This document shows, one piece after another, positions 3,663-19,663 of a DNA stretch of 64,000 nt. The notes under the pieces were generated by a model, which did not search any database, was not told the origin of the DNA, and saw only the letters and a program-made list of their open reading frames with translations. This stretch comes from Aphanothece saxicola GSE-SYN-MK-01-06B (lineage in GTDB: Bacteria; Cyanobacteriota; Cyanobacteriia; PCC-6307; Cyanobiaceae). The translations under genes and the position numbers were made by a program. The stretch's first letter is position 1. Every line of letters begins with the position of its first letter. The stretch lies in assembly GCA_019359745.1 (NCBI GenBank), contig JAHHGT010000002.1, positions 62,001 through 126,000 on the forward strand. The letters are read 5' to 3'.

Positions 3663-4429
3663 GACGTCACGCCGGGCGGGGTTCCCCCGTAGAGGTCCGC
3701 CAGCAGGGCGGCATTCACCTGCGCCACCGGCCCGTCGAACAGCACCCGGCCGTCCTTGAGACCGACGGCCCGATCGAAGCCGTCGAGCAGATCGTGGCGG
3801 TGCAGGCTCAGCAGCAGGGCCCGGGGGGCCACAGCCTGGGCCAGCAGCAGGGCCAGCAACTCGCCGGCCAGGCGCGGATCAAGGCTGGCCAGGGGTTCAT
3901 CAGCCAGCAGCAGCGTGGGCTCCTGGCGCAGCAGACGGGCCATCGCCACCCGCTGGCGCTGGCCGCCGGAGAGGGCCGTCACCGGCTGCTCCAGCAGGGC
4001 CGGCTCCAGGTCCATCGCCCGCAGGGCCACCACGCAGGCGTCGGTGTCGAGGGGCAGCAGCAGGTTGAGCAAGGCCCTGGGCCAGCCCCAGCGGGCCAGG
4101 CGGGCGGCGTTGAGGTTCTGCTGCACGGTCAGCTCCTCGATCAGGCGCAGGTCCTGCCAGAGGGTGCCGATGCGGGCCTGCTGGCGGCGCCGGCCACGGC
4201 GGGAGCGGGCGGGGGCCTGCCCCTCCCACAGCACCGTGCCCGCCGCCGGCGCCAGCAGACCGTTGGCCACCGCCAGCAGGGTGCTCTTGCCGGCGCCGCT
4301 GGCCCCCAGCAGCGCCACGCGCTCACCGGGGGCCAGGCTCAGATCAACGTCCTCCAGCCGGGGCCGCTCCCGGCCGCTGACGCGGATGCCCCGCAGCGCG
4401 AGCACGGCGGTGGGGGGGCCGGCGGCCAT
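3659..4429 (-). CDS. phnC: Phosphonate/phosphite-type ABC transporter ATP-binding protein
   Basis: 256 residues with a complete ABC ATPase motif set: Walker A GASGAGKST at about residues 42-50, Q-loop region 'TLWQDLRLIEELTV', signature LSGGQRQR, Walker B LLLADEP followed by the D-loop SLDP, and the switch His in 'LSLHRHD'. The 'LIEELTVQQNLNAARL' segment is typical of the PhnC subgroup. It energises the fused PhnE permease just downstream, with which it overlaps by 4 nt. It is divergent from the DoxX gene across 127 nt that hold no recognisable signal. Confidence 0.88.
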   Translation of the reverse strand: MAAGPPTAVLALRGIRVSGRERPRLEDVDLSLAPGERVALLGASGAGKSTLLAVANGLLAPAAGTVLWEGQAPARSRRGRRRQQARIGTLWQDLRLIEELTVQQNLNAARLARWGWPRALLNLLLPLDTDACVVALRAMDLEPALLEQPVTALSGGQRQRVAMARLLRQEPTLLLADEPLASLDPRLAGELLALLLAQAVAPRALLLSLHRHDLLDGFDRAVGLKDGRVLFDGPVAQVNAALLADLYGGTPPGVTS

Positions 4430-4556
4430 CGGGGGCGAACAGCGTGAACGTCGGGTCCAGATTGCCAGCCATCCGGCCCGGGTCCCGGGCTCGTCAGGCC
4501 GAAGGAAGCCCCAGCAGAATCAACCCCACAACCCCGTCCTGCGCCCGCGGCCACCG

Positions 4557-4931
4557 ATGACCTCCTCCAGCCGATCCAGGCCATCGCTCCTCGATGGCAT
4601 CGCCCGGGTGCTGCTCTGCCTGGTGTTCCTCCACGCCGTGATCGGCAAGCTGACGGGCTTCGCCGGGGTGGCCGGGATGATCGCCGGCCGGGGCCTGCCG
4701 CTCGCGCCGGTGCTGCTGGCGGCGGCCATGGCGCTGATGGCCGTGGGTTCGGTGCTGGTGATCAGCGGCGTCCGGGTGCGGCTCGGGGCGATCCTGCTGC
4801 TGCTGTTCCTGGTGCCCACCACCCTGCTCTTCCACAACGACGCGGGCGACCCCCAGGAGCGGATCGCGCTGTTGAAGAACCTCTCGATCATGGGGGGCCT
4901 GCTGCTGGTGGCGGAGCGTCCCCCGGCCTGA
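4557..4931 (+). CDS. DoxX-family small membrane protein
   Basis: 124 residues with four predicted membrane helices. The first contains 'LLCLVFLHAVIGKLTGFAGV', matching the DoxX family pattern (helix, G-K, then a short loop). 'FHNDAGDPQERIALLKNLSIMGGLLL' near the end is the most conserved part of the family ('..KNLAL.GGLL'). DoxX-like proteins are inner-membrane proteins, some linked to redox or thiol stress, with roles unknown in most species. The ATG at 4557 was chosen because the family begins right before the first helix; the long upstream open frame is antisense to phnC. It is followed 41 nt later by a cation efflux gene on the same strand. Confidence 0.75.
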   Translation: MTSSSRSRPSLLDGIARVLLCLVFLHAVIGKLTGFAGVAGMIAGRGLPLAPVLLAAAMALMAVGSVLVISGVRVRLGAILLLLFLVPTTLLFHNDAGDPQERIALLKNLSIMGGLLLVAERPPA

Positions 4932-4972
4932 TCGGCTGACGGCTCGCGGCGCCGCAGCCAGGCTGGTTCAAC

Positions 4973-5905
4973 ATGCCCTGGCAGGCTCCTCACCCCATGG
5001 CCTTCGCCTCCCCCCGCGCCTACATCCTTCTGTCGGTGGCGGCGGCGGTGGCCACGATCGTGCTCAAGACCGCGGCCTGGCGCTACACCGGCTCGGTGGG
5101 CCTGCTCTCGGATGCGATGGAATCCGGGGTGAATCTGGTGGCGGCCCTGGGGGCCTTCTGGGCCCTGAGCCTGGCCGCCAAGCCCGCCGACCGCACCCAC
5201 CACTACGGCCATTTCAAGGCCGAATACTTCTCCAGCGGCCTGGAGAGCGTGCTGATCGTGCTGGCGGCGCTGGCCATCATCTATTCAGCCGTTGGGCGCC
5301 TGCAGCACCCGGAGCCGCTGGAACAACTGGGGCTGGGCATGGCCCTCTCCCTGGTGGCCACGGCGCTCAACGGCCTGGTGGCCTGGGTGCTGCTGCGGGC
5401 CTCCCGCCACTTCCACTCGATCACCCTGCGGGCCGACGCCCACCACCTGTTCACCGACGTCTGGACCTCCTGCGGGGTGCTGCTGGGCATCGGCCTGGTG
5501 AAGCTCACCGGCGTGACGATGCTCGACCCGTTGATCGCCATCGCCGTGGCGCTCAACATCACCCTCACCGGTTGGAACCTGCTGCGGGAAACGGCCTCCG
5601 GCCTGCTCGACCGCTCGCTTCCCATCGACGAGCAGGAACGGCTGGAGGCGCTGCTGGCTTCCCATGCAACCGAGGGCATCCGCTTCCACGCCCTGCGTAC
5701 GCGGGTCGCGGGATCACGCCGCTTCGTGGCCTTCCACGTGCTGGTGCCGGGGCAATGGACGGTCCAGGACGGCCATGACCTCTGCGAGCGGCTGGAGCAG
5801 GAGATCGCCATCGCCCTGCCCCGCAGCGATGTGCTCACCCATCTCGAGCCGATCGAGGATCCCAGGGCCTGGGACGACCAGGGATTCCGCTGGGAGGAGG
5901 GTTGA
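4973..5905 (+). CDS. Cation diffusion facilitator (CDF) metal efflux protein
   Basis: 310 residues. Typical CDF architecture: about six membrane helices in the first 210 residues and a C-terminal cytoplasmic alpha/beta domain. Metal-site motifs are visible: 'GLLSDAMES' in helix 2 (SDA..S), 'HHYGHFKAEYFS' after it, and 'DAHHLFTDVWTS' in helix 5 (HH..TDVWTS). These are those of Zn/Fe/Mn transporting members. The protein would export divalent metal against a proton gradient. An alternative start at 4997 begins at 'MAFASPRAY'. The downstream SDR gene starts 37 nt later on the same strand. Confidence 0.88.
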   Translation: MPWQAPHPMAFASPRAYILLSVAAAVATIVLKTAAWRYTGSVGLLSDAMESGVNLVAALGAFWALSLAAKPADRTHHYGHFKAEYFSSGLESVLIVLAALAIIYSAVGRLQHPEPLEQLGLGMALSLVATALNGLVAWVLLRASRHFHSITLRADAHHLFTDVWTSCGVLLGIGLVKLTGVTMLDPLIAIAVALNITLTGWNLLRETASGLLDRSLPIDEQERLEALLASHATEGIRFHALRTRVAGSRRFVAFHVLVPGQWTVQDGHDLCERLEQEIAIALPRSDVLTHLEPIEDPRAWDDQGFRWEEG

Positions 5906-5942
5906 GCCCCATACGATCCAGGCAGCAGCAAGCCCGTCCCCT

Positions 5943-6608
5943 ATGGCCACCGTTCTGATCACCGGCACCAACCGCGGCATCGGCCTGGAATACTGCCGCC
6001 AGCTCCAGGCGAGGGGCGACACGGTGGTGGCGGTCTGCCGCGACCCGTCGCCGGAGCTGGAGGCGCTCGGGGTGCGCATCGAGGCTGGCGTCGATCTCAC
6101 CGATGGGGCCGCCATCGCCGATCTGGTGGACCGGCTCGGCCCGCTGGCCATCGACGCCCTGATTCTCAACGCGGGCCTGCTGGAGCCCACCAGCCTGGAC
6201 GACCTCGACGTCGCGAGCCTGCGGCGCCAGTTCGAGGTGAACGCTGTCGCCCCCCTGCGGCTCACCCAGGCCCTGCTGGGCCATCTCCCCGCCGGCGCCA
6301 AGGTGATCCTGATGACCAGCCGCATGGGCTCGATCGACGACAACAGCTCCGGCGGCGCCTACGGCTACCGGATGTCGAAGGTGGCGCTGTGCATGGCCGG
6401 CAAGTCACTGGCCATCGACCTGCGGCCCCGCGGCATCGCCGTGGCCCTGCTCCATCCCGGCCTGGTGCGCACCCGCATGACGGGCTTCAGTGCGCAGGGC
6501 ATCAGCACCGAAGAATCGGTGCATGGCCTGCTGGCCCGCATCGATGCCCTGACCCTGGAGACGAGCGGCAGCTTCTGGCACGCCAACGGCCAGCTGCTGC
6601 CCTGGTAG
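5943..6608 (+). CDS. Short-chain dehydrogenase/reductase (SDR)
   Basis: 221 residues, classical SDR. Nucleotide-binding motif TGTNRGIG at residues 7-14, the NAG motif in 'LILNAGLLEP', the catalytic Ser in 'ILMTSRMGS', and YGYRMSK giving the YxxxK pair. It resembles the C-factor/sniffer-like small SDRs. Substrate cannot be told from sequence. The ATG at 5943 places the first beta strand (ATVLITG) at the very N-terminus. It may belong to a plus-strand unit with the DoxX and CDF genes. Confidence 0.85.
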   Translation: MATVLITGTNRGIGLEYCRQLQARGDTVVAVCRDPSPELEALGVRIEAGVDLTDGAAIADLVDRLGPLAIDALILNAGLLEPTSLDDLDVASLRRQFEVNAVAPLRLTQALLGHLPAGAKVILMTSRMGSIDDNSSGGAYGYRMSKVALCMAGKSLAIDLRPRGIAVALLHPGLVRTRMTGFSAQGISTEESVHGLLARIDALTLETSGSFWHANGQLLPW

Positions 6609-6627
6609 GGCAGCCGTGAAAGCGCGA

Positions 6628-7194
6628 TCAGACCGCCGCCGTCTGAGGCGGCACGTCGTAGTGGAGTTCAGCGAACGCCTCACCAAGGGCCTGCACCGAT
6701 GTGAGCCTCAGAGGCGGGAAGGCGATCCGCCTGGGAAGGAGCGGAAATCCCTGGCCCAACGTCACGGAGGCCACCTGAATGATCAGCTCATCCAGCAGGC
6801 CGGCATCGAAGAACTGACCCGCCAATTCGCCCCCACCGGCAATCCAGATGTTCTTACCGTCCGCAGCGGCGACCATCTGCTGGTGCACAGGCGAGACAGC
6901 ACCCTGCACGACGCGCAGATCCGCGTTCCGCACGGAGGCAAGCTTGCGGCTCGTGAAAATCCACGTGGGTTGTTCAAAGCGCCAGGGCTTTTCCTCCGAT
7001 GTTCCAGCTTTGATGTAATGATCCACCAGCCACTGATAGGTGGCTGAACCCATGGCAATCGCCCCAACCTCAGCCAGGAAGTTCTTATAGCCTGGACCTT
7101 CCGCTTCACCGAACTGAAGCAACCAGTCCAGGGAGTGATCTGTGGTTGCGATGAACCCATCCAGGCTGCATGCGGCGTAATACTGAGTTTTCAC
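6628..7194 (-). CDS. Dihydrofolate-reductase-like (RibD C-terminal type) protein
   Basis: About 188 residues of the RibD_C/DHFR-like fold. Recognisable parts are 'YYAACSLDGFIA' at the N-terminus, 'LDWLLQF', 'AIAMGSATYQWL' and the nucleotide-binding 'NIWIAGGGELAGQFFDAGLLDELII'-type region split across residues 120-150. These proteins reduce pyrimidine or pterin-like substrates, or have unknown roles. A GTG at 7194 fits the family's usual N-terminus; an in-frame ATG at 7269 adds 25 residues without a clear domain. Base composition is visibly less GC-rich than the neighbouring genes. It is divergent from a pterin dehydratase gene, and convergent with the SDR 20 nt away. Confidence 0.72.
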   Translation of the reverse strand: MKTQYYAACSLDGFIATTDHSLDWLLQFGEAEGPGYKNFLAEVGAIAMGSATYQWLVDHYIKAGTSEEKPWRFEQPTWIFTSRKLASVRNADLRVVQGAVSPVHQQMVAAADGKNIWIAGGGELAGQFFDAGLLDELIIQVASVTLGQGFPLLPRRIAFPPLRLTSVQALGEAFAELHYDVPPQTAAV

Positions 7195-7269
7195 TGAGAG
7201 GTTGACACAGTTGGTGATCGAGGTCAACGCCGAGGCCAAGGGAGCATGATCACATCGGCGAACCTCCAT

Positions 7270-7425
7270 TAAAGGCTGCTGGTTTTACAGGGATGAGGGC
7301 AAGATGCTAAGCGCCATATGTGCCGCAGATCAGCACCTTGACTGCGTCTTCAGTAACCAGAAAAACTCCTTCAGTCGGCATGTCCTTCGCTAGGTTGATT
7401 CCAGCCCAAATAAATCGAACCGAAG
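7270..7425. promoter_or_regulatory. Divergent intergenic region between DHFR-like and pterin dehydratase genes
   Basis: 156 nt separating two divergently transcribed genes. It is richer in A+T than the surroundings and should hold both promoters. A TTGACT hexamer at 7338-7343 resembles a -35 box, but I see no convincing -10 box at the right spacing, so the promoters are not placed exactly. Confidence 0.3.
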
Positions 7426-7761
7426 ATGGTGTTAGCCGACAAGGTCAACAGCCCCGAGGATATTGGTGCCAACCTGACTCCGGATGAGATCAAAGATTCC
7501 CTTGGCTCACTCCCAGGCTGGGATCTGGTGGATGGCCATCACTTGCACAAAGCCTGGACCTTTCAGGACTTCAGCTCAGCTCTCGACTGGGTGGGTCACG
7601 CTGGCGCCATCTGTGAGAAACAGGGCCACCATGCCGACTTCAAGTTGGGCTGGGGTTATGCGGAAGCGATCACCTACACCCACCAGTCTGAAGGACTCAC
7701 CCGAGCTGATATCGCTCTGGCGACAGAACTTGATTGCATCGAAGGGGTCGACATGAGCTGA
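7426..7761 (+). CDS. Pterin-4a-carbinolamine dehydratase family protein
   Basis: 111 residues, the usual length of PCD/DCoH proteins. Family landmarks are 'GWDLVDGHHLHKAWTFQDFSSALDWV' (split as two strands and a helix around residues 32-58) and the active-site region 'EKQGHHADFKLGWGYAEAITYTH'-like stretch at residues 64-87, where the His-His pair and following Tyr are conserved. The usual Pro after HH is Ala here. The enzyme dehydrates 4a-hydroxytetrahydropterin; in cyanobacteria lacking phenylalanine hydroxylase the PCD-like proteins may have other roles. Lower GC than its neighbours. Divergent from the DHFR-like gene, also a pterin-type fold. Confidence 0.8.
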   Translation: MVLADKVNSPEDIGANLTPDEIKDSLGSLPGWDLVDGHHLHKAWTFQDFSSALDWVGHAGAICEKQGHHADFKLGWGYAEAITYTHQSEGLTRADIALATELDCIEGVDMS

Positions 7762-7828
7762 GGAGAACGTATTCCTCGATTCCGATCTGGCGGATCCATA
7801 GGGCCACCAGTTCGTGACGACATCTGCA

Positions 7829-7876
7829 GGTTGGGGACTTCCCACACCAAGACGGGATCGCCCCTGATCCCCAACC
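7829..7876. terminator. Hairpin between convergent genes
   Basis: Perfect 9-bp inverted repeat GGTTGGGGA (7829-7837) and TCCCCAACC (7868-7876), with a second short pairing GGGATC/GATCCC inside. It sits between the stops of the pterin dehydratase (+) and the ChaN-like gene (-), where a bidirectional terminator is expected. No long T-tract. Confidence 0.4.
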
Positions 7877-7913
7877 GGTTCTGCCTCTCCGGTACGGACG
7901 GCCGCGAGGGATC

Positions 7914-9101
7914 TCAGCGGCCCGGCAGGGTCAGCTGCAGCGTCAGCAGCCGCCCATCACGCCGCAGGGTGAGGCCCAGGGGCCGGCCCACGGGGTGGGC
8001 GGCCAGCCGATCGATCACCTGGCGGGCGCTGCTCACGGGCTGGCCATTGATCGCCGCGATGCCATCCCCGACCCGCAGACCGGAGCGCTCCGCCAGCGAA
8101 CCGGGGGCCACCTGGCGGATCTCCACCCGGCCGCCGTGGGTCTCCAGATACACCCCGAGCTTGAGGCCTGCCGGTGGCGGTGACACCACCCCGAACACCG
8201 CCGTGGCCAGCCCCGGCTGCAGCAGGTCGCAGTCGAGACCGGCGTCCCAGGGCAGCAGCCAGGCCGCCTCGCCCAGCCCCAGGGCCCGCAGCTGATGGGG
8301 CACGCCGTGGCCCCCGGCCAGGTGGCCATGGCCGATGAGCCCCACCACCGGGGCGCCGGGGTGGCGACGGCGCCGCTCGGCGATGGCCTCGGCCATGGCC
8401 CGATCCCACAGCTGCTGGCTCTCCACGAAACGGACGAAAGAGGGATCCTCCAGGCCGGGCCGCCCCTGGCCGCTGTCGGGAACGAAGGGGTGGTGCTGCC
8501 AGAGCCGGTGCAGCTGGGCCCGGTAGGCCGCGCTGGCCGGTGCCGGTGGGCCCACCCCCTCCCGCTCGCTGGCGGGCACGGCCGCGAGCCCCTCAGCCCG
8601 CACCCGCCGCACCAGCTGGCGGTCCACGTTCAGGGCCAGAAGCGGCACGCGTCGGTCGCGGGCGAAGCGCAGGATCGGCAGGTAGAGGTTGGCGTCGTAG
8701 CCCCAGATGGCCGACCAGTCGAGGGCCTCAAGGAAGGCGCGCTCCTCCAGCTCCCCGGCCACCCAGCGGTCGAGCACCGGCTGGAGTCGGCGCGGCACCA
8801 TCTCCAGGCCGAGGCTGAGGCTGGGGCTGCGCGCCAGCAATGCCTGGAGCGTGGCCAGCTGCCACTGATGGTGGGCGGCACTGTCGTGGCGTTCTCCCAG
8901 TAGCACCGCCGGCCGCCCGGCCAGGCGATCGAGCAGGTCGCCCGCCGCCACAGCACGGGGGCCGGCGGATGTGGGCTCCACCCAGGTGCCACCTGTCACA
9001 CACACACTGGCGGCCCCAGGCCCAGCCGCGCCCAGCAGGGCGACCAGAACCAGCCCGGCGGTGCTGGTCCCGCGGCGGTGCCAGCGGCCGAGCGGGATCA
9101 G
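7914..9101 (-). CDS. ChaN-family (Tiki-like) lipoprotein/periplasmic protein with C-terminal PDZ domain
   Basis: About 395 residues. A hydrophobic N-terminus (residues ~12-28) looks like a signal peptide. The central domain has the ChaN/DUF399 signature: 'VLLGERHDSAAHH' (the GE..H metal/haem site), 'LGLEMVPRR', 'GYDANLYLPIL', 'LNVDRQLV' and 'VGLIGHGHLAGG'. The last 95 residues form a PDZ domain ('VAPGSLAERSGLRVGDGIAAINGQ'-like core). ChaN proteins bind haem or act as peptidase-like Tiki folds. The frame has no ATG near its beginning; the start is set at about 9101 (CTG/ATC), where it overlaps the phnD stop, so it is uncertain. The overlap suggests co-transcription with phnD. Confidence 0.7.
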   Translation of the reverse strand: MIPLGRWHRRGTSTAGLVLVALLGAAGPGAASVCVTGGTWVEPTSAGPRAVAAGDLLDRLAGRPAVLLGERHDSAAHHQWQLATLQALLARSPSLSLGLEMVPRRLQPVLDRWVAGELEERAFLEALDWSAIWGYDANLYLPILRFARDRRVPLLALNVDRQLVRRVRAEGLAAVPASEREGVGPPAPASAAYRAQLHRLWQHHPFVPDSGQGRPGLEDPSFVRFVESQQLWDRAMAEAIAERRRRHPGAPVVGLIGHGHLAGGHGVPHQLRALGLGEAAWLLPWDAGLDCDLLQPGLATAVFGVVSPPPAGLKLGVYLETHGGRVEIRQVAPGSLAERSGLRVGDGIAAINGQPVSSARQVIDRLAAHPVGRPLGLTLRRDGRLLTLQLTLPGR

Positions 9102-10045
9102 CGGATCTTGCCGATCTGGCGGCCCACCTGCTCGATCATGGTGTAGGCCTTGGCGTTGGCCCCGGTGAACTGCTGGGCACCGAACAGGGCCAGGATCTGC
9201 TTCTGGGTGGGGTTGCTGGCGCGCCAGCTGAGGATCGCCCGCTGCACCTTGGCGGTGAAGCCCTTGCCAAAGCGCTTGTCGAGGTCCGGCTGGGCGATCC
9301 AGTGGTAATCGGGGTAGCCCGTCGACCTCCAGAGGGCGATCACCTTGGCGGGGTTGGCCTTGCCGTCGCGCAGGCTGGCACTCCACACCTGCTCGTTCAC
9401 GGCACCGGCGTCATAGGCGCCGCTCTGCACCAGGGCGATGGTGGCGTCGTGGCTGCCGCTGAACCCGGGCGAACCGCCGGCGAAGTCCGAGAGTTTCACC
9501 CCCGCCTTGGCCAGGAAGAACTGGGGCATGAGCCGGCCGGAGGTGGAGCTTTCGGAGCCGAAGGTGAAGCGCTTGCCCTTCAGTTCACTCAGGCCCTTGG
9601 CGTTGCTGATGGGCTTGAGGCCGCTGCGGCTGTTGGCGATGAAGATCGTGCGGAACGAGACGTCGATGTCGCGCTGGGCGATCACACGGGCGCCGGGTTT
9701 CTGCAGCCGGGCCTGTACGCCGGTGAGCCCGCCGAACCAGACCAGATCGAGGGCGCCGGTGCGGAAGGCGCTGACGGCGGCGGCATAGTCGACCACCGGC
9801 ACATAGACCACCTTCACCCCAAGCTGCCGGCCGAGTTCATTTGCCACAAGCGGATAGAGGCGGTTGAGCTTCTCCGGCTTCTGGTCGGGGATGGCGCCGA
9901 TGCGCAGCACCTTCTGGCTCTGCTGGGCCGCCGCCGGAGCCAGCAGGCTGCCCAGGGGCGGGGCGGGGGGCGCCAGCAGCGGAAGCAGCGCCAGCGAAAC
10001 CCCCATCAGGGCGGCGGTGGCGGTGGCGCGGATCCGGAGTTGCAT
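9098..10045 (-). CDS. phnD: Phosphate/phosphite/phosphonate ABC transporter substrate-binding protein
   Basis: 315 residues. Signal peptide at residues 1-41 ending in 'PAAAQQ'. Mature protein has the PhnD/PtxB fold: 'LRIGAIPDQKPEKL' at the start, 'YPLVANELGRQLGVKV', 'YAAAVSAFRTGALDLVWFGG', and 'KGKRFTFGSESSTSGRLMPQ' (the Ser/Thr-rich oxyanion-binding loop). It would deliver the ligand to a PhnCE transporter; the phnC-phnE pair lies at 2118-4429. The longer frame upstream of 10045 is rejected because the signal peptide begins at MQLRIRA. The following ChaN-like gene overlaps its stop. Phosphonate and phosphite cannot be told apart here. Confidence 0.85.
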   Translation of the reverse strand: MQLRIRATATAALMGVSLALLPLLAPPAPPLGSLLAPAAAQQSQKVLRIGAIPDQKPEKLNRLYPLVANELGRQLGVKVVYVPVVDYAAAVSAFRTGALDLVWFGGLTGVQARLQKPGARVIAQRDIDVSFRTIFIANSRSGLKPISNAKGLSELKGKRFTFGSESSTSGRLMPQFFLAKAGVKLSDFAGGSPGFSGSHDATIALVQSGAYDAGAVNEQVWSASLRDGKANPAKVIALWRSTGYPDYHWIAQPDLDKRFGKGFTAKVQRAILSWRASNPTQKQILALFGAQQFTGANAKAYTMIEQVGRQIGKIR

Positions 10046-11192: not shown

Positions 11193-13266
11193 CCACCCGA
11201 CCGATCAGGCGAGCCTCGGGGAAGCCAGCCTGATGCAGGGCGGCCAGGGCGGCTTGAGCCCGCACCGCCGGCAGGGCCGCCAGCAGCGGTCCGCAGGTCT
11301 GGGGGTCGATCAAGAGCCCCGCCAGGGCCGCCAGCCCACCGCCCCCCATCAGCCGCACCGGCCCCTCCAGCAAGGGCAGGGCCGCAGCGTTGGCGGCGGC
11401 CAGGGAGCTGGCGAAGCCCCGCTCCAGCAACTCCAGGGCGCCGGGATAGGCCGTGATGGCGGCCGCGTCGAGCTCCACGGCCACCGCCGCGCCGCTGGCG
11501 TCCAGCATCTCGCCCAGGTGGCCCAGCAGGCCGAAGCCAGTCACGTCCGTACAGGCGCCGCAGCCATGGGCGGCCAGCAGCGGCACCAGGGGGGCCTGGC
11601 TGTGCTGCATCGCCACCAGCACCGCCTCCATCCAGGCGGGGGCAGCGGCGCCGGCCATGGCGGCGGCGAACAGCACGCCGGTGCCCAGGGACCGGCTCAG
11701 CAGCAGGGCATCGCCGGGGCGCAGTGGCCCCTTGCCCCAGGGCACCGCCGGCGTGACCGTGCCGTTCACGGTGAGACCCAGGGCCAGCCCCGCCCCGTCG
11801 CGGCCCTCCAGGGTGTGGCCGCCGGCCAGGGAGGCGCCAAGGGGCTGCAGCACCGAGCGCACCCCGGCCAGGGTCTGCAGCAGCAGCTCCTCCTGGATGG
11901 CGGCGGCCGCCTCCGGCACCGTCACCAGGGCCTGCACACTTGTCACCGCCGCGCCGCTGGCCCAGAGGTCGCTGCAGGCATGCAGGGTGGTGAGCCGGCC
12001 GTTCAGCCAGGGGTCGTCCACCAGGGCCGGGAAGCCATCAACGCTCTGCAGCAGCAGGGAGCCATCGGCGCCGGTGCCCACCGCGGCCGCGTCTTCCACC
12101 GCCGGCGGCTGACCGCCTGGATCGAGCCTGGTCAGGGCGGCCGTCAGGGGGGCGGCCCCCAGCTTGGCGGCGCAGCCGCGGCAGGCCATGGCGGCCGCGG
12201 CCATCGGCTGGAGCGCGGCGAAGCGGGCCATGAAGGCCCGATCGATGCGCTGCTTCCAGCGCCAGATCCACCCCGCTGGCCCCAGGGCCCAGGGCCCGAG
12301 GAGGGCCAGGGCCCGGGGGCCAGCGGCCTGCCAACCGCCGTCGCCCAGCAACTGCAGGGCCCGCGCCTGGGGCCGCCAGGGCCGCAACGGCCTGGGGGGA
12401 TCGCCCAGGCTGCGGCAGAGGTTGTCCGCCAGCACCGGCGCCGCCCGCACGGCCCACACCCCCGAGGGGGGCCGGGGATCGGTGGCGATCAGGCCGCAAT
12501 CGCCGCTGGCGAACAGCTCCGGATGGCCAATCACCTGGAGGCTGGATGTGGTCAGCACCCGGCCAGTCGCCGGGTCCACCGGCAGGCCGGCGGCCGCCAG
12601 CCAGGCCGGGGCGCGGCTGCCGGTGCAGGCCAGATCGGCCGGGGCATCAGGCGGCGCCCGCCGCTGGACCGGGATGGCGGCCTCGGCCAGCATCCGTTCA
12701 CCGGCCCGGTTCGCTGCCGTCGATCCCAGCTGCAGGCCCTCCCCCTTGAGCAGCAGGCGGCAGACCATCCCCCGGGCCCGGAAGGCCAAAGCCAGCTCCA
12801 CGGCGGCGGCCCCACCGCCGCGGATCACCAGGGGCTGACCGGCATGGCGCCGCTCCGCCCAGGCCAGGAAGGGCTCCAGCGGCTTGACGGCCATCGCCTC
12901 CCCTGCCGTGGCGGTCACGGCGCCCAGATCAAGGCTGAGCCGGTCGAACCGCAGCGAGGGGCGCCCCGCCAGTTGCAGCTCCCGGGCCGCCGGATCCAGA
13001 CCGGTGATCTCCGCCTGCACAAAGATGACGCCGGCCAGGGTGCAGAGGCGGCGCAGGTCGATGGTGGCGGCCTCCGGGAGTTCCAGCCCCGCCACCACGG
13101 CGGGCAGCAGGCCCGAATAGAGGGCAGTGCCGTGGCGGCTCACCAGCCAGAGGCGGGTGCGCGGCGGCTTGGTGCGCGGGCGCATCAGCCAGCGCCGCAG
13201 CACCAGCACGTGGCTGTGGCCGCCCCCCGCCAGGACCAGCTGCTGCCGCTCCAGGGCCGCGCTCAT
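11149..13266 (-). CDS. selD: SelD selenide,water dikinase fused to an N-terminal FAD-dependent oxidoreductase domain
   Basis: 705 residues. Residues 1-355 are a pyridine-nucleotide-disulfide-oxidoreductase-like flavoprotein: FAD site 'LVLAGGGHSHVLVL' near residue 10, 'VIRGGGAAAVELAL' as second nucleotide site, and 'ELFASGDCG' as the late FAD motif. From residue 360 a complete SelD follows: 'CRGCAAKLG' with Cys362/Cys365 and Lys368 at the active site, 'GGHTLEGRD' and 'DVTGFGLLGHLGEM'. SelD makes selenophosphate from selenide and ATP; the flavoprotein half is thought to help supply reduced selenium. A Cys, not Sec, occupies the active site. It overlaps SulP upstream by 4 nt and mnmH downstream by 44 nt (tail to tail). 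Confidence 0.9.
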   Translation of the reverse strand: MSAALERQQLVLAGGGHSHVLVLRRWLMRPRTKPPRTRLWLVSRHGTALYSGLLPAVVAGLELPEAATIDLRRLCTLAGVIFVQAEITGLDPAARELQLAGRPSLRFDRLSLDLGAVTATAGEAMAVKPLEPFLAWAERRHAGQPLVIRGGGAAAVELALAFRARGMVCRLLLKGEGLQLGSTAANRAGERMLAEAAIPVQRRAPPDAPADLACTGSRAPAWLAAAGLPVDPATGRVLTTSSLQVIGHPELFASGDCGLIATDPRPPSGVWAVRAAPVLADNLCRSLGDPPRPLRPWRPQARALQLLGDGGWQAAGPRALALLGPWALGPAGWIWRWKQRIDRAFMARFAALQPMAAAAMACRGCAAKLGAAPLTAALTRLDPGGQPPAVEDAAAVGTGADGSLLLQSVDGFPALVDDPWLNGRLTTLHACSDLWASGAAVTSVQALVTVPEAAAAIQEELLLQTLAGVRSVLQPLGASLAGGHTLEGRDGAGLALGLTVNGTVTPAVPWGKGPLRPGDALLLSRSLGTGVLFAAAMAGAAAPAWMEAVLVAMQHSQAPLVPLLAAHGCGACTDVTGFGLLGHLGEMLDASGAAVAVELDAAAITAYPGALELLERGFASSLAAANAAALPLLEGPVRLMGGGGLAALAGLLIDPQTCGPLLAALPAVRAQAALAALHQAGFPEARLIGRVVSRRQAAAASPTPG

Positions 13267-14969
13267 GGGCTGGGCGCGGCGATCGCCCTGGCCTGGTAGG
13301 CCGCGATCGCCGTGGGCAAGGTGGGAAAGAACAGGCGGGTTCCGATCTTCTCCACCAGGCCGGCCCGTTCGAGCTGGGAATAGAGGTCCTGCTTGACCCG
13401 CACCAGGCCGAAGGTGATGCCCTGGGCGGTCAGTTCCCGCTGCAGTTCCTCGAGCACGTCGGCGGCGGTGATGTCGATCTCCACGATCGCCTCGGCATTG
13501 AGCACGAACCAGGCCACCGGCTGGGGCTCGGCGGCGATCATCGCCAGCACCCGCTGGCGGAAATACTCAGCGTTGGCGAAACAGAGGGGCGCATCAAAGC
13601 GGAACAGCACCAGGCCAGGGATGGTGCGCGCCCCCTCCCAGTCGCGCACGTCGTGCAGGCCCGCCAGCCGGGGCACGATCCCCATGACGGCGTCGTGGGG
13701 ACGCACCAGCCGGGCGAACAGGTCGATCACCGACAGCCCCACCGCCAGGGCCACACCGATCAGCAGGTCGGTGGCCAGCACCCCCACCAGGGTGATCAGG
13801 GCGAGCCGGAATTCGCTGGGGCGGAAGCGCTGCAACCGCAGGAACTCCGGGATGTCGATCAGGCGCAGGGCGGCATAGATGACGATCGCCCCCAGGGCCG
13901 CCGTGGGGAACAGGGCCAGCACCGGCCGCAGCCACAGCAACACCGCCAGCACCACCACCAGCGCCACCAGCGAGAACAGCTGGGAGCGGCTGCCGAGGGA
14001 ATCACCGATGGCGGTGCGGCTGCCGCTGCTGCTCACCGGAAAGCCCTGCATCAGCCCATTGCCCAGGTTGCTGACGCCGAGGGCCAGCAGTTCCTGGTTG
14101 GCGTCGATGCGGTAGCTGCCCCTGGCGGCGAAGGCCCTGGCCGTGAGCACGTTGTCGGAATAGCCCACCAGGGAAATGCCCACCGCCGCCGTCAGCAGAT
14201 AGCGCAGCTGGGCTGGTGAGACCCAGGGCGGCAGCGCCGGCTGGGGCAGCCCGGCGGGGATGGCGCCGATCACGGCCACGCCGCGCTGATCCAGGTGTCC
14301 CACCGCCACCACCGCCATGGCCAGCAGCACCGCCAGCAGCGGGCCTGGCGCCCGAGGGAAGCGGCGCTGCACCAGCAACAGGAACACCAGCACCCCCAAC
14401 GCCAGCAGCAGGGTGGGCTGATGGATCTCCCCCAGCCGACGCAGCAGCTCCAGCAACTGGGCGGGGCTGGAGTCGGCCTGCAGCGTCATGCCACTGATCC
14501 GACCCAGCTGGCCGCCGATCATGATCAGGGCCACGCCGCCCAGGTAGCCCACCAGGATCGGTCGGGAGAGCAGGTCGGCCAGGAACCCCAGCCGGGCCCA
14601 GGCGCCAGCGCAGCAGACCAGCCCCACCAGCAGGGCCAGCAGGCTGCAGAAGCCGGCGTAGGCGAGCGGGTCCCCCGCCACCAGCGGCCCGACCGCCGCG
14701 GCCGTCATCACGGCGGTGGTGGATTCGGGTCCCACCGAGAGCTGGGGCGAGGACCCCAGCAGGGCATACAGAAACAGCGGTGGCAGGATCGCCCACAGGC
14801 CCGCCACCGGCGCCAGGCCGGCCACTTCGGCGTAGGCCATGCACTGGGGCACCAGGTAGGCGGCCACCGTGACACCGGCGAGCAGGTCCGGCCGCAGCCA
14901 GCTGCGCTGGTAGCCCAGCAACCTCGCGAGACCCGGCAACACACTGGCCAGGCGTTCGCGCGGCTCCAT
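13263..14969 (-). CDS. SulP-family anion transporter with STAS domain
   Basis: 568 residues. The membrane part (about residues 20-425) has the SulP hallmarks 'YLVPQCMAYAEVAGLAPVAGLWA' (read as two adjoining pieces) and 'LSVGPESTTAVMTA' in the anion-binding region. The C-terminal STAS domain (about 440-555) contains 'WFVLNAEAIVEIDITAADVL'. SulP proteins move sulfate, bicarbonate, molybdate or similar oxyanions. It overlaps selD by 4 nt (ATGA), so the two are probably co-expressed; selenate or selenite uptake is therefore conceivable but unproven. Two HIP1 octamers (GCGATCGC) lie near its 3' end at 13279-13286 and 13303-13310. Confidence 0.87.
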   Translation of the reverse strand: MEPRERLASVLPGLARLLGYQRSWLRPDLLAGVTVAAYLVPQCMAYAEVAGLAPVAGLWAILPPLFLYALLGSSPQLSVGPESTTAVMTAAAVGPLVAGDPLAYAGFCSLLALLVGLVCCAGAWARLGFLADLLSRPILVGYLGGVALIMIGGQLGRISGMTLQADSSPAQLLELLRRLGEIHQPTLLLALGVLVFLLLVQRRFPRAPGPLLAVLLAMAVVAVGHLDQRGVAVIGAIPAGLPQPALPPWVSPAQLRYLLTAAVGISLVGYSDNVLTARAFAARGSYRIDANQELLALGVSNLGNGLMQGFPVSSSGSRTAIGDSLGSRSQLFSLVALVVVLAVLLWLRPVLALFPTAALGAIVIYAALRLIDIPEFLRLQRFRPSEFRLALITLVGVLATDLLIGVALAVGLSVIDLFARLVRPHDAVMGIVPRLAGLHDVRDWEGARTIPGLVLFRFDAPLCFANAEYFRQRVLAMIAAEPQPVAWFVLNAEAIVEIDITAADVLEELQRELTAQGITFGLVRVKQDLYSQLERAGLVEKIGTRLFFPTLPTAIAAYQARAIAAPSP

Positions 14970-14988: not shown

Positions 14989-15324
14989 TCATTTCCGGCG
15001 CAGCGGCAGCACCTGGCTGGGGCACAGGTCCTTGTCCTCCTCCACGCCCTTCATGCCGGCGAGCACCCCCTCCAGATCGTCCTTGGTGGAGGGGTCTCCA
15101 CTGATGATGTCCAGCTGCGCCTGGGCCAGCTTGGCGCGGGTGGCCGTGGAGATGAAGCCGTCCTTTTCCAGGTTGCACAAGGCGCTCATGTAACCGGAAC
15201 CCACCCCCACCATCACCATGAATTCCTCCCTTGGGCTGAGTTCCCCACCCTGTGGTTGCGCCGCGGCCAGTCCTGGTGTGGCGTTCAGAAGCGCCAGGAG
15301 CAGCAGTGCGAAGGGGGTGGGCAT
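14989..15324 (-). CDS. Small secreted protein of unknown function
   Basis: 111 residues. A clear signal peptide occupies residues 1-22 (MPTPFALLLLALLNATPGLA, cleavage near AAA/AQ). The mature part contains two Cys residues ('ALCNLEKDGFI' and 'KDLCPSQVL'), which may form a disulfide, and a helical stretch 'TRAKLAQAQLDII'. I recognise no family. It lies 19 nt upstream-facing of the SulP start on the same strand and 44 nt downstream of the muramidase fusion gene. Confidence 0.6.
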   Translation of the reverse strand: MPTPFALLLLALLNATPGLAAAQPQGGELSPREEFMVMVGVGSGYMSALCNLEKDGFISTATRAKLAQAQLDIISGDPSTKDDLEGVLAGMKGVEEDKDLCPSQVLPLRRK

Positions 15325-15368: not shown

Positions 15369-16775
15369 TCAGGCCTCCTGGAACACCGACAGATAGACCG
15401 TGCCCTGTTCCACCAGCGGCAGCAGCTTGTCGCGCAGGTCCTCGTTGTGCAGCCGCACGCAGCCGAGGGTGGAATGCAGGGGCTGGCGAGGCGCCCAGGC
15501 CCCGGGCCAGCCGCAAGCGCTGCCGCCGCCGTGCACCATGATCCCGGCCCGGCCGAAACGCCGTTCCTGCCTCTCCAGATCCTCCAGATCAAAGCTGTAC
15601 CAGCCGTAGCTGCGGCGGTCAGCGGAGTAGGTGGGGCTGGGATCCTGCTCGTAGTCCCGGTACACCTTCTTGGCGATGCGGTAGATCCCGGGCGGGGTGT
15701 CGGTGGACGTGTCCTGGTACTGGTCCTCCCGGCCCTGGCCACGGGCCAGCGCCGGGATCTCCCACAGCAGTCGGCCCTCCGCATCGAAGGCCCGGGCCGT
15801 CTCGCTGACGTCGTTGACCACCACATGGCTGTCGGTGCCGCTGAAGCCGAAGTCCTGGGGGGTCTTCTTCGGGCCCACCAGACCGGGCGGATCGACGGGG
15901 CGCTCGGTGGCGGGCGGGGCCGTGAGGGCCTTCGCCGCCGGAGCCGAACCGTCAGCCTCCTGCTTCAACCGTTGCTCCCAGGCTTCGCAATCGTCGGGCG
16001 TGCGGATCTCCCGCTCCGCCTGGGCACAGGCGACGGCGGGCTCCATGCCACCCCACACCAGGCCCTCGGCCCGGCGACGGCGGCCCAGCCCGACCTCCAC
16101 CGTCTCGCCAGGGTTGCGATACAGCATCAGGGCCGCGGGAACGGCCCCCCAGCGGCGCTCCCGCAGGTGGCGGTCAAGGGTGTCGTGGTAGCCGTCGCCG
16201 TGAAAATGGGCGCCGTTGTTGTAGGCGAAGCTGCACAGGGCGGCCCGCTGCCGATCGGCCATGTCCGCCCAGAAGGGGATCGTGGCCTCCAGCACCTTCC
16301 AGAACCTTTCGCGGCAGTTGTGCCCGTAGAGCGCATCGGCCTGGGCCTGGGTGATCACATCCCCCAGCCGGATCGGGGAACCGTCCTGGTAGAAGGTGCT
16401 GCCCCAGCCGATCGTGATCGGCTCACCGCCGGTGCGGGGGTCGGGGTAGGCCTGCAATCGGCAACCCTCGTAGTGGTGGTTGAGCGCGGCCACCTCGGGG
16501 GGAAGCGGACCCTCGGCCGAAGCTGCCAGCCACGCATCATCGGGAATGATGAAGCGCACGGGATTGAGGTAGCGCTGCTCCCCGTCCGGCAGCGGCACCG
16601 TGCCCCCCGGACAGGTGTAGGGCCCCGCCAGCCGCACGATCGCCAGGTCCGTCCCGGAGGCCGGCCGCACCCAGGCCACAGCGATGCGGGAGCCGGCCGC
16701 CACATAGGAATCGGCATCGGCGGCGGCAGGACTGGGGCTGAGACCCGCGTCCTGGCGGGCGGTGATGTACGGCAT
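15369..16775 (-). CDS. GH24 muramidase fused to a YkuD-type L,D-transpeptidase
   Basis: 468 residues. Residues 95-260 match phage-type lysozymes (GH24): catalytic Glu103 in 'NHHYEGCRLQAYPDP', Thr121 in 'PITIGWGSTF', and 'RQRAALCSFAYNNGA'. Residues 315-468 match YkuD L,D-transpeptidases: His415 in 'GIMVHGGG' and catalytic Cys439 in 'STLGCVRLHNEDL'. One half would cut glycan strands of peptidoglycan, the other cross-link or anchor at its peptides. There is no obvious signal peptide, so export may depend on another route. Its ATG overlaps the stop of the upstream membrane protein gene by one base (TGATG), so the two are coupled. Confidence 0.8.
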   Translation of the reverse strand: MPYITARQDAGLSPSPAAADADSYVAAGSRIAVAWVRPASGTDLAIVRLAGPYTCPGGTVPLPDGEQRYLNPVRFIIPDDAWLAASAEGPLPPEVAALNHHYEGCRLQAYPDPRTGGEPITIGWGSTFYQDGSPIRLGDVITQAQADALYGHNCRERFWKVLEATIPFWADMADRQRAALCSFAYNNGAHFHGDGYHDTLDRHLRERRWGAVPAALMLYRNPGETVEVGLGRRRRAEGLVWGGMEPAVACAQAEREIRTPDDCEAWEQRLKQEADGSAPAAKALTAPPATERPVDPPGLVGPKKTPQDFGFSGTDSHVVVNDVSETARAFDAEGRLLWEIPALARGQGREDQYQDTSTDTPPGIYRIAKKVYRDYEQDPSPTYSADRRSYGWYSFDLEDLERQERRFGRAGIMVHGGGSACGWPGAWAPRQPLHSTLGCVRLHNEDLRDKLLPLVEQGTVYLSVFQEA

Positions 16776-17320
16776 CAGAGGCTTCCCCCCAGCCGGATCC
16801 GCTCCAGGGGGGTCAGGGCCGCTGCCGGCGGGGCCACGGGGGTGGCCGCGCTCACCTGGATCGGGGTGCGGCTGCGCTCGATCTCCACCCGCAGCCGCTC
16901 CACCTCCTCCAGCAACTGACGCAGGCGGGGATCTTCCGCTGGGGGCGAGACGGCGGCCGCAGCGGGCGGGCGATCCATGGAGCCGGAGACAGCGTCGAGC
17001 ACCAACTCCCGCAGGCCGGAGCCCTTGAGATCACCGAGGCGCTGCTCGGCGAACTTCTGCACCACCTTGGGGGCAAAGGCCGCCAGCAGAAAGGCGAAGC
17101 TGATGACGATCCCGGTGTCGTCCCGGGGCGGCGCGGTGAGCGTCTCCTGGCCGGATGCATCCCTGGTCAGCATCGGCGTGCTGCGCACCATGGTGACCGC
17201 GGCGAAGCCGATCGATGCCAGCAGGGCCAGCAGACACATCAACCGCATGGCGGAACGGTTGCCCGGGGATTCCTCCAGAAACCCGGTCGTCGATCCGGCG
17301 GCACGGGTAGGGGCTGTCAT
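16775..17320 (-). CDS. Small membrane protein coupled to the muramidase fusion
   Basis: About 181 residues. Two hydrophobic segments are visible: 'LMCLLALLASIGFAAVTMV' and 'GIVISFAFLLAAFAPKVVQKF'. After them comes a charged region with a probable coiled coil ('RLRQLLEEVERLRVEIERSR'). I recognise no family. The stop codon shares a base with the start of the muramidase/L,D-transpeptidase gene. A small two-helix membrane protein next to a lysozyme recalls a holin-endolysin pair, but the long C-terminal tail is not typical of holins. An in-frame codon at 17338 would give a slightly longer form. Confidence 0.6.
   Translation of the reverse strand: MTAPTRAAGSTTGFLEESPGNRSAMRLMCLLALLASIGFAAVTMVRSTPMLTRDASGQETLTAPPRDDTGIVISFAFLLAAFAPKVVQKFAEQRLGDLKGSGLRELVLDAVSGSMDRPPAAAAVSPPAEDPRLRQLLEEVERLRVEIERSRTPIQVSAATPVAPPAAALTPLERIRLGGSL

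Positions 17321-17356: not shown

Positions 17357-19663
<2,307 letters not shown>

What the first reader, a model, noticed from the sequence alone, without database searches (positions are those of the whole stretch)
15369..17320. Muramidase and L,D-transpeptidase joined in one protein, coupled to a small membrane protein
One 468-residue chain contains a phage-type GH24 lysozyme (Glu103, Thr121) and a YkuD L,D-transpeptidase (His415, Cys439). The start codon overlaps the stop of a two-helix membrane protein with a coiled-coil tail. A cutter and a cross-linker of peptidoglycan in one protein, with a holin-like companion, suggests a cell-wall remodelling or envelope-anchoring unit of possible phage origin.
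Basis: partly seen in the sequence, partly recalled or inferred. Interest (0 to 1): 0.55.

Follow-up and report, generated by a model that had tools for sequence, protein, structure and literature searches.

The report
Phage-like cell-wall-cutting gene pair, host-kept
A small group of freshwater cyanobacteria keeps, at a fixed place in the chromosome, a two-gene unit that looks like a virus's cell-opening kit: a small membrane protein and one enzyme that joins a cell-wall cutter to a second cell-wall enzyme of a type usually known for making cross-links.

Summary
One intact 468-aa ORF (15369-16775, minus) carries a GH24 lysozyme and a YkuD L,D-transpeptidase (LDT) domain, both above Pfam cut-offs, with the named residues. 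Its start overlaps by one base the stop of a 181-aa two-helix membrane protein. It is no artefact: the pair is intact in 14 genomes of one Cyanobium-like genus, at one syntenic site, under purifying selection; the membrane gene was found in 14 of 400 family genomes.

Best reading: a host-kept, phage-type lysis or release unit rather than a cross-linking or anchoring one. The LDT subfamily is common in cyanophage contigs: in 58 of 80 viral loci it is fused to, or lies near, a GH24 or GH73 enzyme, in 9 more a weakly GH19-like one. Phage S-CRM01 has GH24 then LDT as here, split by a frameshift. The membrane protein's core matches small phage proteins, but 'holin' is inferred. Two relatives carry a diverged cassette at the same site.

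Activities, cargo and role are untested. The nearest logic in print is the type 10 secretion of typhoid toxin.

The parts
15369..16775 (-). FUS: 468-aa single-chain enzyme (N-terminal region + GH24 + linker + YkuD LDT)
   Evidence: conserved full length in 13 further genomes
16500..16775 (-). FUS residues 1-92: conserved N-terminal region without a Pfam match; also in the variant cassette of two relatives
16065..16475 (-). GH24 lysozyme domain, residues 101-237 (Glu103, Asp112, Thr121)
15429..15827 (-). YkuD LDT domain, residues 317-449 (His415, Cys439, Arg441 in HGGG...TLGCVR)
16775..17320 (-). MEM: 181-aa two-helix membrane protein, stop overlaps the FUS start by 1 nt
   Evidence: in the same 12 of 60 genomes as full-length FUS
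17177..17254 (-). MEM hydrophobic stretch 1 (about residues 23-48)
17054..17116 (-). MEM hydrophobic stretch 2 (about residues 69-89), followed by the FAPKxxQKFAEQ-type motif shared with phage proteins
16871..16930 (-). MEM C-terminal charged helix, candidate coiled coil (about residues 131-150)
   Evidence: low-confidence model
17441..19663 (+). flank: peroxidase gene (PF00141, two stretches; name KatG recalled), divergent; neighbour in 12 of 13 other genomes
14989..15324 (-). flank: 111-aa protein with a signal-peptide-like start (by eye), just downstream; found in 11 of 13 other genomes
13263..14969 (-). flank: SulP-type transporter (PF00916 + STAS); neighbour in 13 of 13 other genomes

Best explanation
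MEM-FUS is a phage-type wall-opening unit that a lineage of Cyanobium-like cyanobacteria has kept as a chromosomal gene pair. Shown: the two domains, the strict co-occurrence and coupling with MEM, the fixed site, purifying selection, and kinship of the LDT domain and the MEM core with viral proteins. Inferred: FUS accumulates in the cytoplasm (no signal peptide or helix); MEM, a two-helix protein with both ends probably cytoplasmic, lets it reach the wall the way a holin does; GH24 then cuts glycan strands, while the YkuD domain acts on the peptide stems, either by hydrolysis or by converting cross-links into a form the muramidase prefers. The outcome is controlled opening of the wall, to release cargo or to lyse the cell.
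For: Both domains pass Pfam cut-offs and both are under purifying selection: median pairwise dN/dS 0.12 for GH24, 0.16 for LDT, 0.19 for FUS as a whole, 0.39 for MEM, 0.23 for the KatG neighbour (12 genomes for FUS and MEM, 11 for KatG). MEM is in 12 of 60 genomes (own included), exactly those with full-length FUS, and in 14 of 400 family genomes, all of one genus. The site is conserved in 13 of 13 other genomes on the SulP side and 12 of 13 on the KatG side. Of the best 80 of 511 viral LDT loci, 58 have a GH24 or GH73 enzyme fused or nearby: GH24 as a neighbouring gene 24 (23 with a 4-nt overlap if the first start codon is taken), GH73 fused 20, a second GH24 type 0.3-0.7 kb downstream 14; 9 more have a homologue of the weakly GH19-like part of phage B23, fused 4, separate 5 (Pfam checks of examples). 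S-CRM01 aligns over residues 71-466 of the 467-residue query at 50.5%. The LDT tree joins the FUS clade to one viral and one prophage-like LDT at 98/86, apart from an 18-row host LDT clade. The MEM core matches two viral-contig proteins at 44% and 35% and a third viral protein is 61% identical to one of these. FUS has no hydrophobic segment (highest 19-residue mean 1.03). [quoted passage not shown] phage-derived muramidase/holin units reused for secretion (PMC13284979, passages).
Against: No activity, expression or localisation data. Of four phage contexts of MEM relatives, one lies beside an annotated structural protein, two beside ORFs that I read as capsid-like without a family search, and one beside a 1328-aa ORF; none is a proven lysis cassette. 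PHROGs gave MEM no match under E 0.02 and three phage relatives none under 0.01. The charge pattern for MEM topology is weak. The GH24 part sits in a host-only clade apart from the LDT-adjacent phage GH24s, so the fusion may have been assembled in the host. No intact one-chain GH24-LDT was seen among the 80 viral loci. The conserved motif arginine also fits a cross-linking enzyme. I did not search for spanins. The Mic1 LDT was not among the hits of this subfamily at E 1e-3 (only S-CRM01, B23, S-CBS4); I did not check that the collection holds Mic1.
Confidence: 0.5

Rival explanations
1. A wall-remodelling or envelope-anchoring enzyme: GH24 opens strands, the LDT makes 3-3 cross-links or attaches proteins to peptidoglycan, and MEM only tethers it.
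For: [quoted passage not shown] The motif arginine Arg441 (R440 in the 467-residue numbering) is invariant in 12 of 12 FUS rows and in 8 of 8 LDT rows. That it is the DpaA-missing one is my assignment by motif. Vertical retention at one site.
Against: No signal peptide or helix; the same LDT subfamily is common in viral contigs beside glycosidases; MEM-FUS is in only 14 of 42 genus genomes, so not a core wall function.
Confidence: 0.2
2. A self-killing (abortive infection) module: the unit lyses the cell when a phage infects.
For: Cassette exchange at a fixed site in G024 and G203: flanks 92-96% identical, N-region + GH24 57%, different membrane partner and C-terminus. A GH24 69% identical to that of FUS is built into an 1185-aa protein with an FGE-sulfatase domain, next to an AAA ATPase and a VMAP-C protein in G024, a class described as conflict systems (PMC7159879, passages).
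Against: No PADLOC match for FUS, MEM, the G024 variant pair or the 1185-aa protein; no sensor gene in the pair; the exchange also fits recombination without such a role.
Confidence: 0.2
3. A decaying prophage remnant without host function.
For: Phage-type domains; the own genome has a second LDT gene near a major head protein gene; one relative (G203) keeps only a short relic of the LDT tail.
Against: Intact in 14 genomes at one site, dN/dS 0.19; the neighbours scanned by Pfam are a peroxidase, SulP, an AIR-synthase-type protein and a trypsin-PDZ protein; two others scanned had no family above cut-off.
Confidence: 0.05
4. The YkuD domain is a substrate-binding module only and GH24 does all the work.
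For: A modest Pfam score, and TLGC where THGC is commoner: 14 of 14 FUS rows against 18 TLGC, 58 THGC and 4 TYGC of 80 viral LDTs.
Against: His, Cys and Arg are invariant; TLGC also occurs in viral LDTs; the domain is under constraint.
Confidence: 0.05

Closest known systems
Type 10 secretion system of typhoid toxin (TtsA muramidase, YcbB/LdtD LDT, unidentified holin; PMC12729407 and PMC13284979, passages)
   Same: Phage-lysis-derived logic: muramidase without signal sequence, an LDT, and a holin to pass the inner membrane.
   Different: There the muramidase is of another family (GH108, recalled) and the LDT is a separately exported host enzyme; here GH24 and LDT are one chain coupled to MEM. 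No cargo known.
Cyanophage S-CRM01 g113-g112 (NC_015569)
   Same: GH24 then LDT, 50.5% identity over residues 71-466 of the 467-residue query.
   Different: Split into two reading frames by a frameshift inside GH24, different N-terminal region; MEM found no match in the phage collection at E 1.
Cyanophage S-CBS4 gp63 and B23 gp319
   Same: Same LDT subfamily (61.4% identity) fused to a glycosidase-type domain.
   Different: GH73 in S-CBS4; weakly GH19-like (below the Pfam cut-off) and C-terminal in B23.
Cyanophage Mic1 gp80 L,D-transpeptidase (PMC11237433, passages)
   Same: An LDT in a late expression cluster; the authors suggest a part in lysis.
   Different: A phage gene of its own; not among the hits of this subfamily.
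Host GH24 + C39-like peptidase proteins of the same genus, with membrane helices in the same chain (L260, L272, L261)
   Same: GH24 plus a second cysteine enzyme in one chain, membrane-linked.
   Different: Second domain is C39-like; helices are in the same chain; other genes.

Membership tests
GH24 phage lysozyme (PF00959) | Profile match above the curated cut-off | tested here: met
   70 bits vs 22.3; PDB lysozymes and endolysins match
GH24 phage lysozyme (PF00959) | Catalytic Glu/Asp/Thr in place | tested here: met
   E103, D112, T121, invariant in 12 of 12 rows. The roles are recalled
GH24 phage lysozyme (PF00959) | Muramidase activity | not testable with these tools
   needs an assay
YkuD L,D-transpeptidase (PF03734) | Profile match above the curated cut-off | tested here: met
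   36.3 bits vs 23.4; but no PDB chain matched by the LDT alignment at E 0.01
YkuD L,D-transpeptidase (PF03734) | Catalytic His and Cys of the H...[ST]xGCxR motif | tested here: met
   H415, C439, R441; invariant in 12 of 12 and 8 of 8
YkuD L,D-transpeptidase (PF03734) | Cross-linking rather than hydrolytic activity | not testable with these tools
   needs muropeptide analysis
Holin | Small protein with one to three membrane helices beside a lysin gene lacking a signal peptide | tested here: met
   two hydrophobic segments, 1-nt overlap with FUS, no signal in FUS
Holin | Sequence match to a known holin family | tested here: not met
   no Pfam or NCBIfam match; no PHROG match under E 0.02 in 12 members
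Holin | Forms membrane lesions and releases an endolysin | not testable with these tools
   needs a lysis assay
Type 10 secretion system | Holin + peptidoglycan hydrolase + secreted cargo | tested here: inconclusive
   first two by anatomy only; no cargo identified
Prophage | Phage structural or integration genes around it and mobile position | tested here: not met
   same site in 13 of 13 other genomes on the SulP side, 12 of 13 on the KatG side; neighbours scanned by Pfam show no phage family
Known defence system | PADLOC match | tested here: not met
   none for FUS or MEM at E 0.1

The most novel reading that the evidence does not exclude
A cyanobacterial, one-chain version of the typhoid-toxin logic: a domesticated phage-type unit in which an LDT edits cross-links and a muramidase in the same polypeptide cuts the edited wall, let through the membrane by its coupled partner, for non-lytic release of cargo or for programmed lysis. 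It would rest on a widespread cyanophage module in which an LDT serves wall opening rather than wall building.
Probability: 0.25. Interest if true: 0.75.

Novelty: new variant of a known kind. Interest (0 to 1): 0.5.

Why it matters
LDTs are usually studied as wall builders. Here one subfamily is repeatedly tied, in viral contigs and in a host chromosome, to enzymes that cut the wall. If it hydrolyses or edits cross-links to help lysis, that is a little-explored role for the fold in phages and a ready test case for how muramidase and LDT cooperate. A host-kept unit in free-living picocyanobacteria would also extend phage-derived release systems beyond the bacteria in which the passages I read describe them.

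Tried and rejected
Structure prediction gave unusable models (FUS mean pLDDT 39; MEM 57), probably because only 12 close homologues were in each alignment; no fold search was run. PDB search with the LDT alignment found nothing at E 0.01, so active-site geometry was not checked. PHROGs did not cover the LDT part at E 0.1 and gave only weak, scattered hits to MEM. NCBIfam matched GH24 to a gene-transfer-agent endolysin model far below its cut-off (51.5 vs 315 bits); not taken up. PADLOC gave no match. The C-terminal domain of the G024 variant (H..SAGC motif, seen by eye) showed no homology to the LDT profile. A direct phage source of the GH24 part was not found (S-CRM01's split GH24 is not in that tree). 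A frameshift or fusion artefact was rejected (14 intact genomes). In the trees the rows L192-L195 and L197 are labelled 'host_other' although they are orthologues of FUS; I read them as FUS. The LDT tree's bootstrap had not settled, and its root is the midpoint. Viral counts rest on the best 80 of 511 loci, ranked by similarity, and include near-copies: 57 distinct LDT proteins, of which 39 have GH24 or GH73 fused or nearby and 8 the GH19-like part. The GH19 label is weak: below cut-off in two fused examples, and no Pfam match in two separate-gene examples. Of the 13 loci with none of these, 6 end within 0.7 kb of the LDT on one side, so absence there says little. Of the 30 family genomes that have this LDT but no MEM, the best LDT locus of 18 was fetched and scanned; none showed GH24 over 120 residues or more; the other 12 were not checked. 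and score only the best candidates of a first look, so a diverged MEM could be missed. A survey of GH24-YkuD chains in all cyanobacteria was not made: one search covers 23 genera outside the own one, one genome each, with no full-length match.
Full report
WHAT IS THERE. The window lies in a 3.25-Mb genome (G000); the named genomes that encode full-length relatives are mostly Cyanobium and Synechococcus strains. On the minus strand, 15369-16775 is one open frame of 468 aa (FUS). Pfam finds GH24 lysozyme at residues 101-237 (E 3.1e-19) and YkuD LDT at 317-449 (E 1e-8), both above the curated cut-offs. Glu103, Asp112, Thr121, His415, Cys439 and Arg441 are in place. Residues 1-92 form a conserved N-terminal region without a Pfam match. 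The upstream gene, MEM, is 181 aa from the conserved ATG at 17320; it has two hydrophobic segments and a charged C-terminal tail, and its TGA shares one base with the FUS ATG. FUS has no hydrophobic segment (highest 19-residue mean 1.03), hence no sign of a signal peptide.

HOW REAL AND HOW KEPT. Full-length FUS is in 12 of 60 genomes, the own one included, and MEM in exactly the same 12. In 400 family genomes MEM was found in 14, all of one genus; the two added ones also hold full-length FUS. The genus has 42 genomes held, so 14 of 42 carry the pair. The order KatG - MEM - FUS - (a Na/Ca-exchanger-type gene in some) - 111-aa gene - SulP is conserved: in the 13 other genomes SulP is found in 13, KatG in 12 and the 111-aa gene in 11. 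MEM and FUS overlap by one base in 11 and are separated by about 13 bases in 2 of these 13 (two MEM alignments are cut short, and one search gives their ends). Identity of FUS is 80-92%. Median pairwise dN/dS is 0.19 for FUS (GH24 0.12, LDT 0.16, N-region 0.23, linker 0.29), 0.39 for MEM and 0.23 for KatG. The pair is thus a kept chromosomal unit and neither an artefact nor a decaying prophage.

PHAGE KINSHIP. In 50,697 phage records, 182 match FUS somewhere, and two records, both S-CRM01, are covered over at least 80% of the query: 50.5% identity over residues 71-466 of the 467-residue query. There GH24 and LDT lie in two overlapping genes; g112 begins with the last part of GH24, so the pair reads as one GH24-LDT gene interrupted by a frameshift near a run of A. 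Whether this is a sequencing error, a real break or programmed frameshifting cannot be told here. With the LDT alone as query, three isolates match at E 1e-3: S-CRM01, B23 and S-CBS4. In S-CBS4 it is fused to a GH73 glucosaminidase, in B23 to a part that matches GH19 only below its cut-off. In IMG/VR 511 stretches encode a relative; the best 80 were kept. In those 80 the LDT is fused to GH73 (20) or lies near a GH24 gene of the first type (24) or of a second type (14), 58 in all; in 9 more a homologue of the B23 GH19-like part is fused (4) or separate (5); 13 show none of these. In 23 of the 24 first-type neighbours the LDT stop overlaps the GH24 start by 4 bases; in the other (L155) GH24 comes first, as in FUS. 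The second GH24 type lies some hundreds of bases downstream, not adjoining. Two first-type and one second-type neighbour were checked and pass the Pfam GH24 cut-off. No intact one-chain GH24-LDT was seen among the 80.

TREES. In the LDT tree (90 rows) the FUS clade (100/99) joins one viral LDT and one LDT from a relative's endolysin-like protein at 98/86; an 18-row clade of other host LDTs lies apart on a branch of 0.58 (midpoint root). The endolysin-like reading of that relative's gene rests on a PHROG endolysin match (E 1.1e-10). In the GH24 tree (57 rows) the 16-row clade with FUS holds host proteins only (100/99); 16 LDT-adjacent phage GH24s form their own clade (93/98), and L155 lies elsewhere. 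A fair reading is a phage-type LDT joined to a GH24 lineage of these hosts. Phage ancestry of the GH24 part is not shown.

THE MEMBRANE PARTNER. The MEM core (GFLEE..GNRS.MRLM ... FAPKxxQKFAEQ) matches proteins of 70-79 aa in two viral contigs (44% and 35% identity); a 71-aa protein in a third contig is 61% identical to one of these, and a stretch without an annotated gene in Salisaeta icosahedral phage 1 matches it weakly (37.7%, E 3e-4). The Salisaeta stretch adjoins an annotated structural protein; in two contigs the neighbours look capsid-like to me, without a family search, and in one a 1328-aa ORF precedes it. MEM itself found nothing in the phage collection at E 1. Kinship with phage proteins is supported; a holin function is inferred from size, topology and position only.

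A VARIABLE CASSETTE. In G024 and G203 the same site holds a 473-aa protein with four hydrophobic stretches and no detectable MEM match and, overlapping it by one base, a 619/621-aa protein with the same N-region and GH24 (57% identity over 1-298), a peptidoglycan-binding domain (PF01471: above cut-off in G024, just below in G203) and a different C-terminal domain. The flanks are 92-96% identical (SulP, 111-aa gene, KatG), and G203 keeps a short relic of the FUS LDT tail downstream. Membrane partner and C-terminal domain thus change together, which suggests, but does not prove, that they work together. Other genomes of the genus carry GH24 plus C39-like peptidase chains with membrane helices of their own, so joining GH24 to a second wall enzyme near a membrane segment recurs in these hosts.

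MECHANISM. Most likely FUS waits in the cytoplasm and MEM gates or carries it to the wall, where GH24 cuts glycan and the LDT domain acts on stem peptides. The review of LDTs lists transpeptidase, carboxypeptidase and endopeptidase activities for YkuD enzymes, and notes that the hydrolase DpaA lacks a catalytic-site arginine conserved in the cross-linking enzymes (PMC12729407, passages); the arginine of the GCxR motif is kept here, which leaves transpeptidation possible. Two modes remain open: hydrolysis, as in two-activity lysins, or editing of cross-links for the muramidase. The second has a precedent in typhoid toxin release, where a muramidase without signal sequence, an LDT and a still unidentified holin cooperate (PMC13284979, passages; PMC12729407, passages). 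The two sources differ in wording on which cross-links TtsA cleaves; the title of the original paper (reference seen, paper not held) speaks of LDT editing that controls muramidase-dependent secretion.

KNOWN OR NEW. Cyanophage Mic1 expresses an LDT late, and its authors suggest a part in lysis (PMC11237433, passages). A hot-spring virome study lists YkuD among its endolysin domain types (PMC5017753, passages). PhaLP lists 10 YkuD-bearing phage lytic proteins (PMC8310338, one passage); a gut-phage survey reports one GH25-YkuD protein (PMC13284279, one passage). So YkuD in phage lytic proteins is known but rare in those lists. A search for Cyanobium with endolysin and holin found no paper; searches for cyanophage with transpeptidase (6 papers), YkuD with endolysin (8), D-transpeptidase with phage, endolysin and lysis (23, 20 listed), S-CRM01 with endolysin (6) and Synechococcus with D-transpeptidase and phage (5) showed no description of a GH24-LDT chain in the listings or in the passages I read. 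I read none of those papers whole, and subscription papers are mostly absent from the library. I rate it a new variant of a known kind: a two-activity lysin with a membrane partner, host-kept and unusual in its second domain.

CONFIDENCE. Observation: near certain. Host-kept pair: about 0.95. Phage-type LDT: about 0.8. MEM acting like a holin: about 0.5. Release or lysis as the physiological role, self-killing included: about 0.7, of which the reading given as best has 0.5.

Noticed in passing
L041 (G024:C9) 3153-9494: A GH24 domain 69% identical to that of FUS sits inside an 1185-aa protein with an FGE-sulfatase domain, next to an AAA ATPase (MoxR-like by eye) and a DUF4062-VMAP-C protein: a lysozyme apparently built into a VMAP-type conflict system. 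A vWA domain was not matched by Pfam.
   Followed up: partly
L040 7736-11022 and L257 6571-9851 (same site in G024 and G203): Variant cassette at the FUS site: a 473-aa membrane protein of unknown family plus N-region-GH24-PG_binding-unknown domain with an H..SAGC motif; flanks 92-96% identical, cassette 57%.
   Followed up: partly
L034 3887-5196 (Synechococcus phage S-CRM01 g113-g112): The phage GH24-LDT gene is split by a frameshift near a run of A inside GH24; sequencing error, real break or programmed frameshift.
   Followed up: partly
L098-L177 (viral contigs): The same LDT subfamily is widespread in viral contigs with GH24, GH73 or a weakly GH19-like enzyme; in 23 of 80 loci LDT and GH24 genes overlap by 4 bases.
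   Followed up: yes
L049 9232-12101 (G000:C7): The window's own genome has a second LDT gene of this family (52% identity, Pfam score a hair below the cut-off), about 1.1 kb from a gene matching a phage major head protein (phrog_212).
   Followed up: partly
L260, L272, L261, L262, L265, L276, L277: Host proteins with two or more predicted membrane helices and GH24; the three scanned by Pfam (L260, L272, L261) also have a C39-like peptidase; in L260, L272 and L277 an approximately 300-aa multi-helix protein of unknown family is encoded just upstream.
   Followed up: partly
L117 6066-6212 and similar places in L119, L133: A 48-aa hydrophobic protein is encoded near the LDT and a second GH24 gene in siphophage-like contigs; candidate holin.
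   Followed up: no
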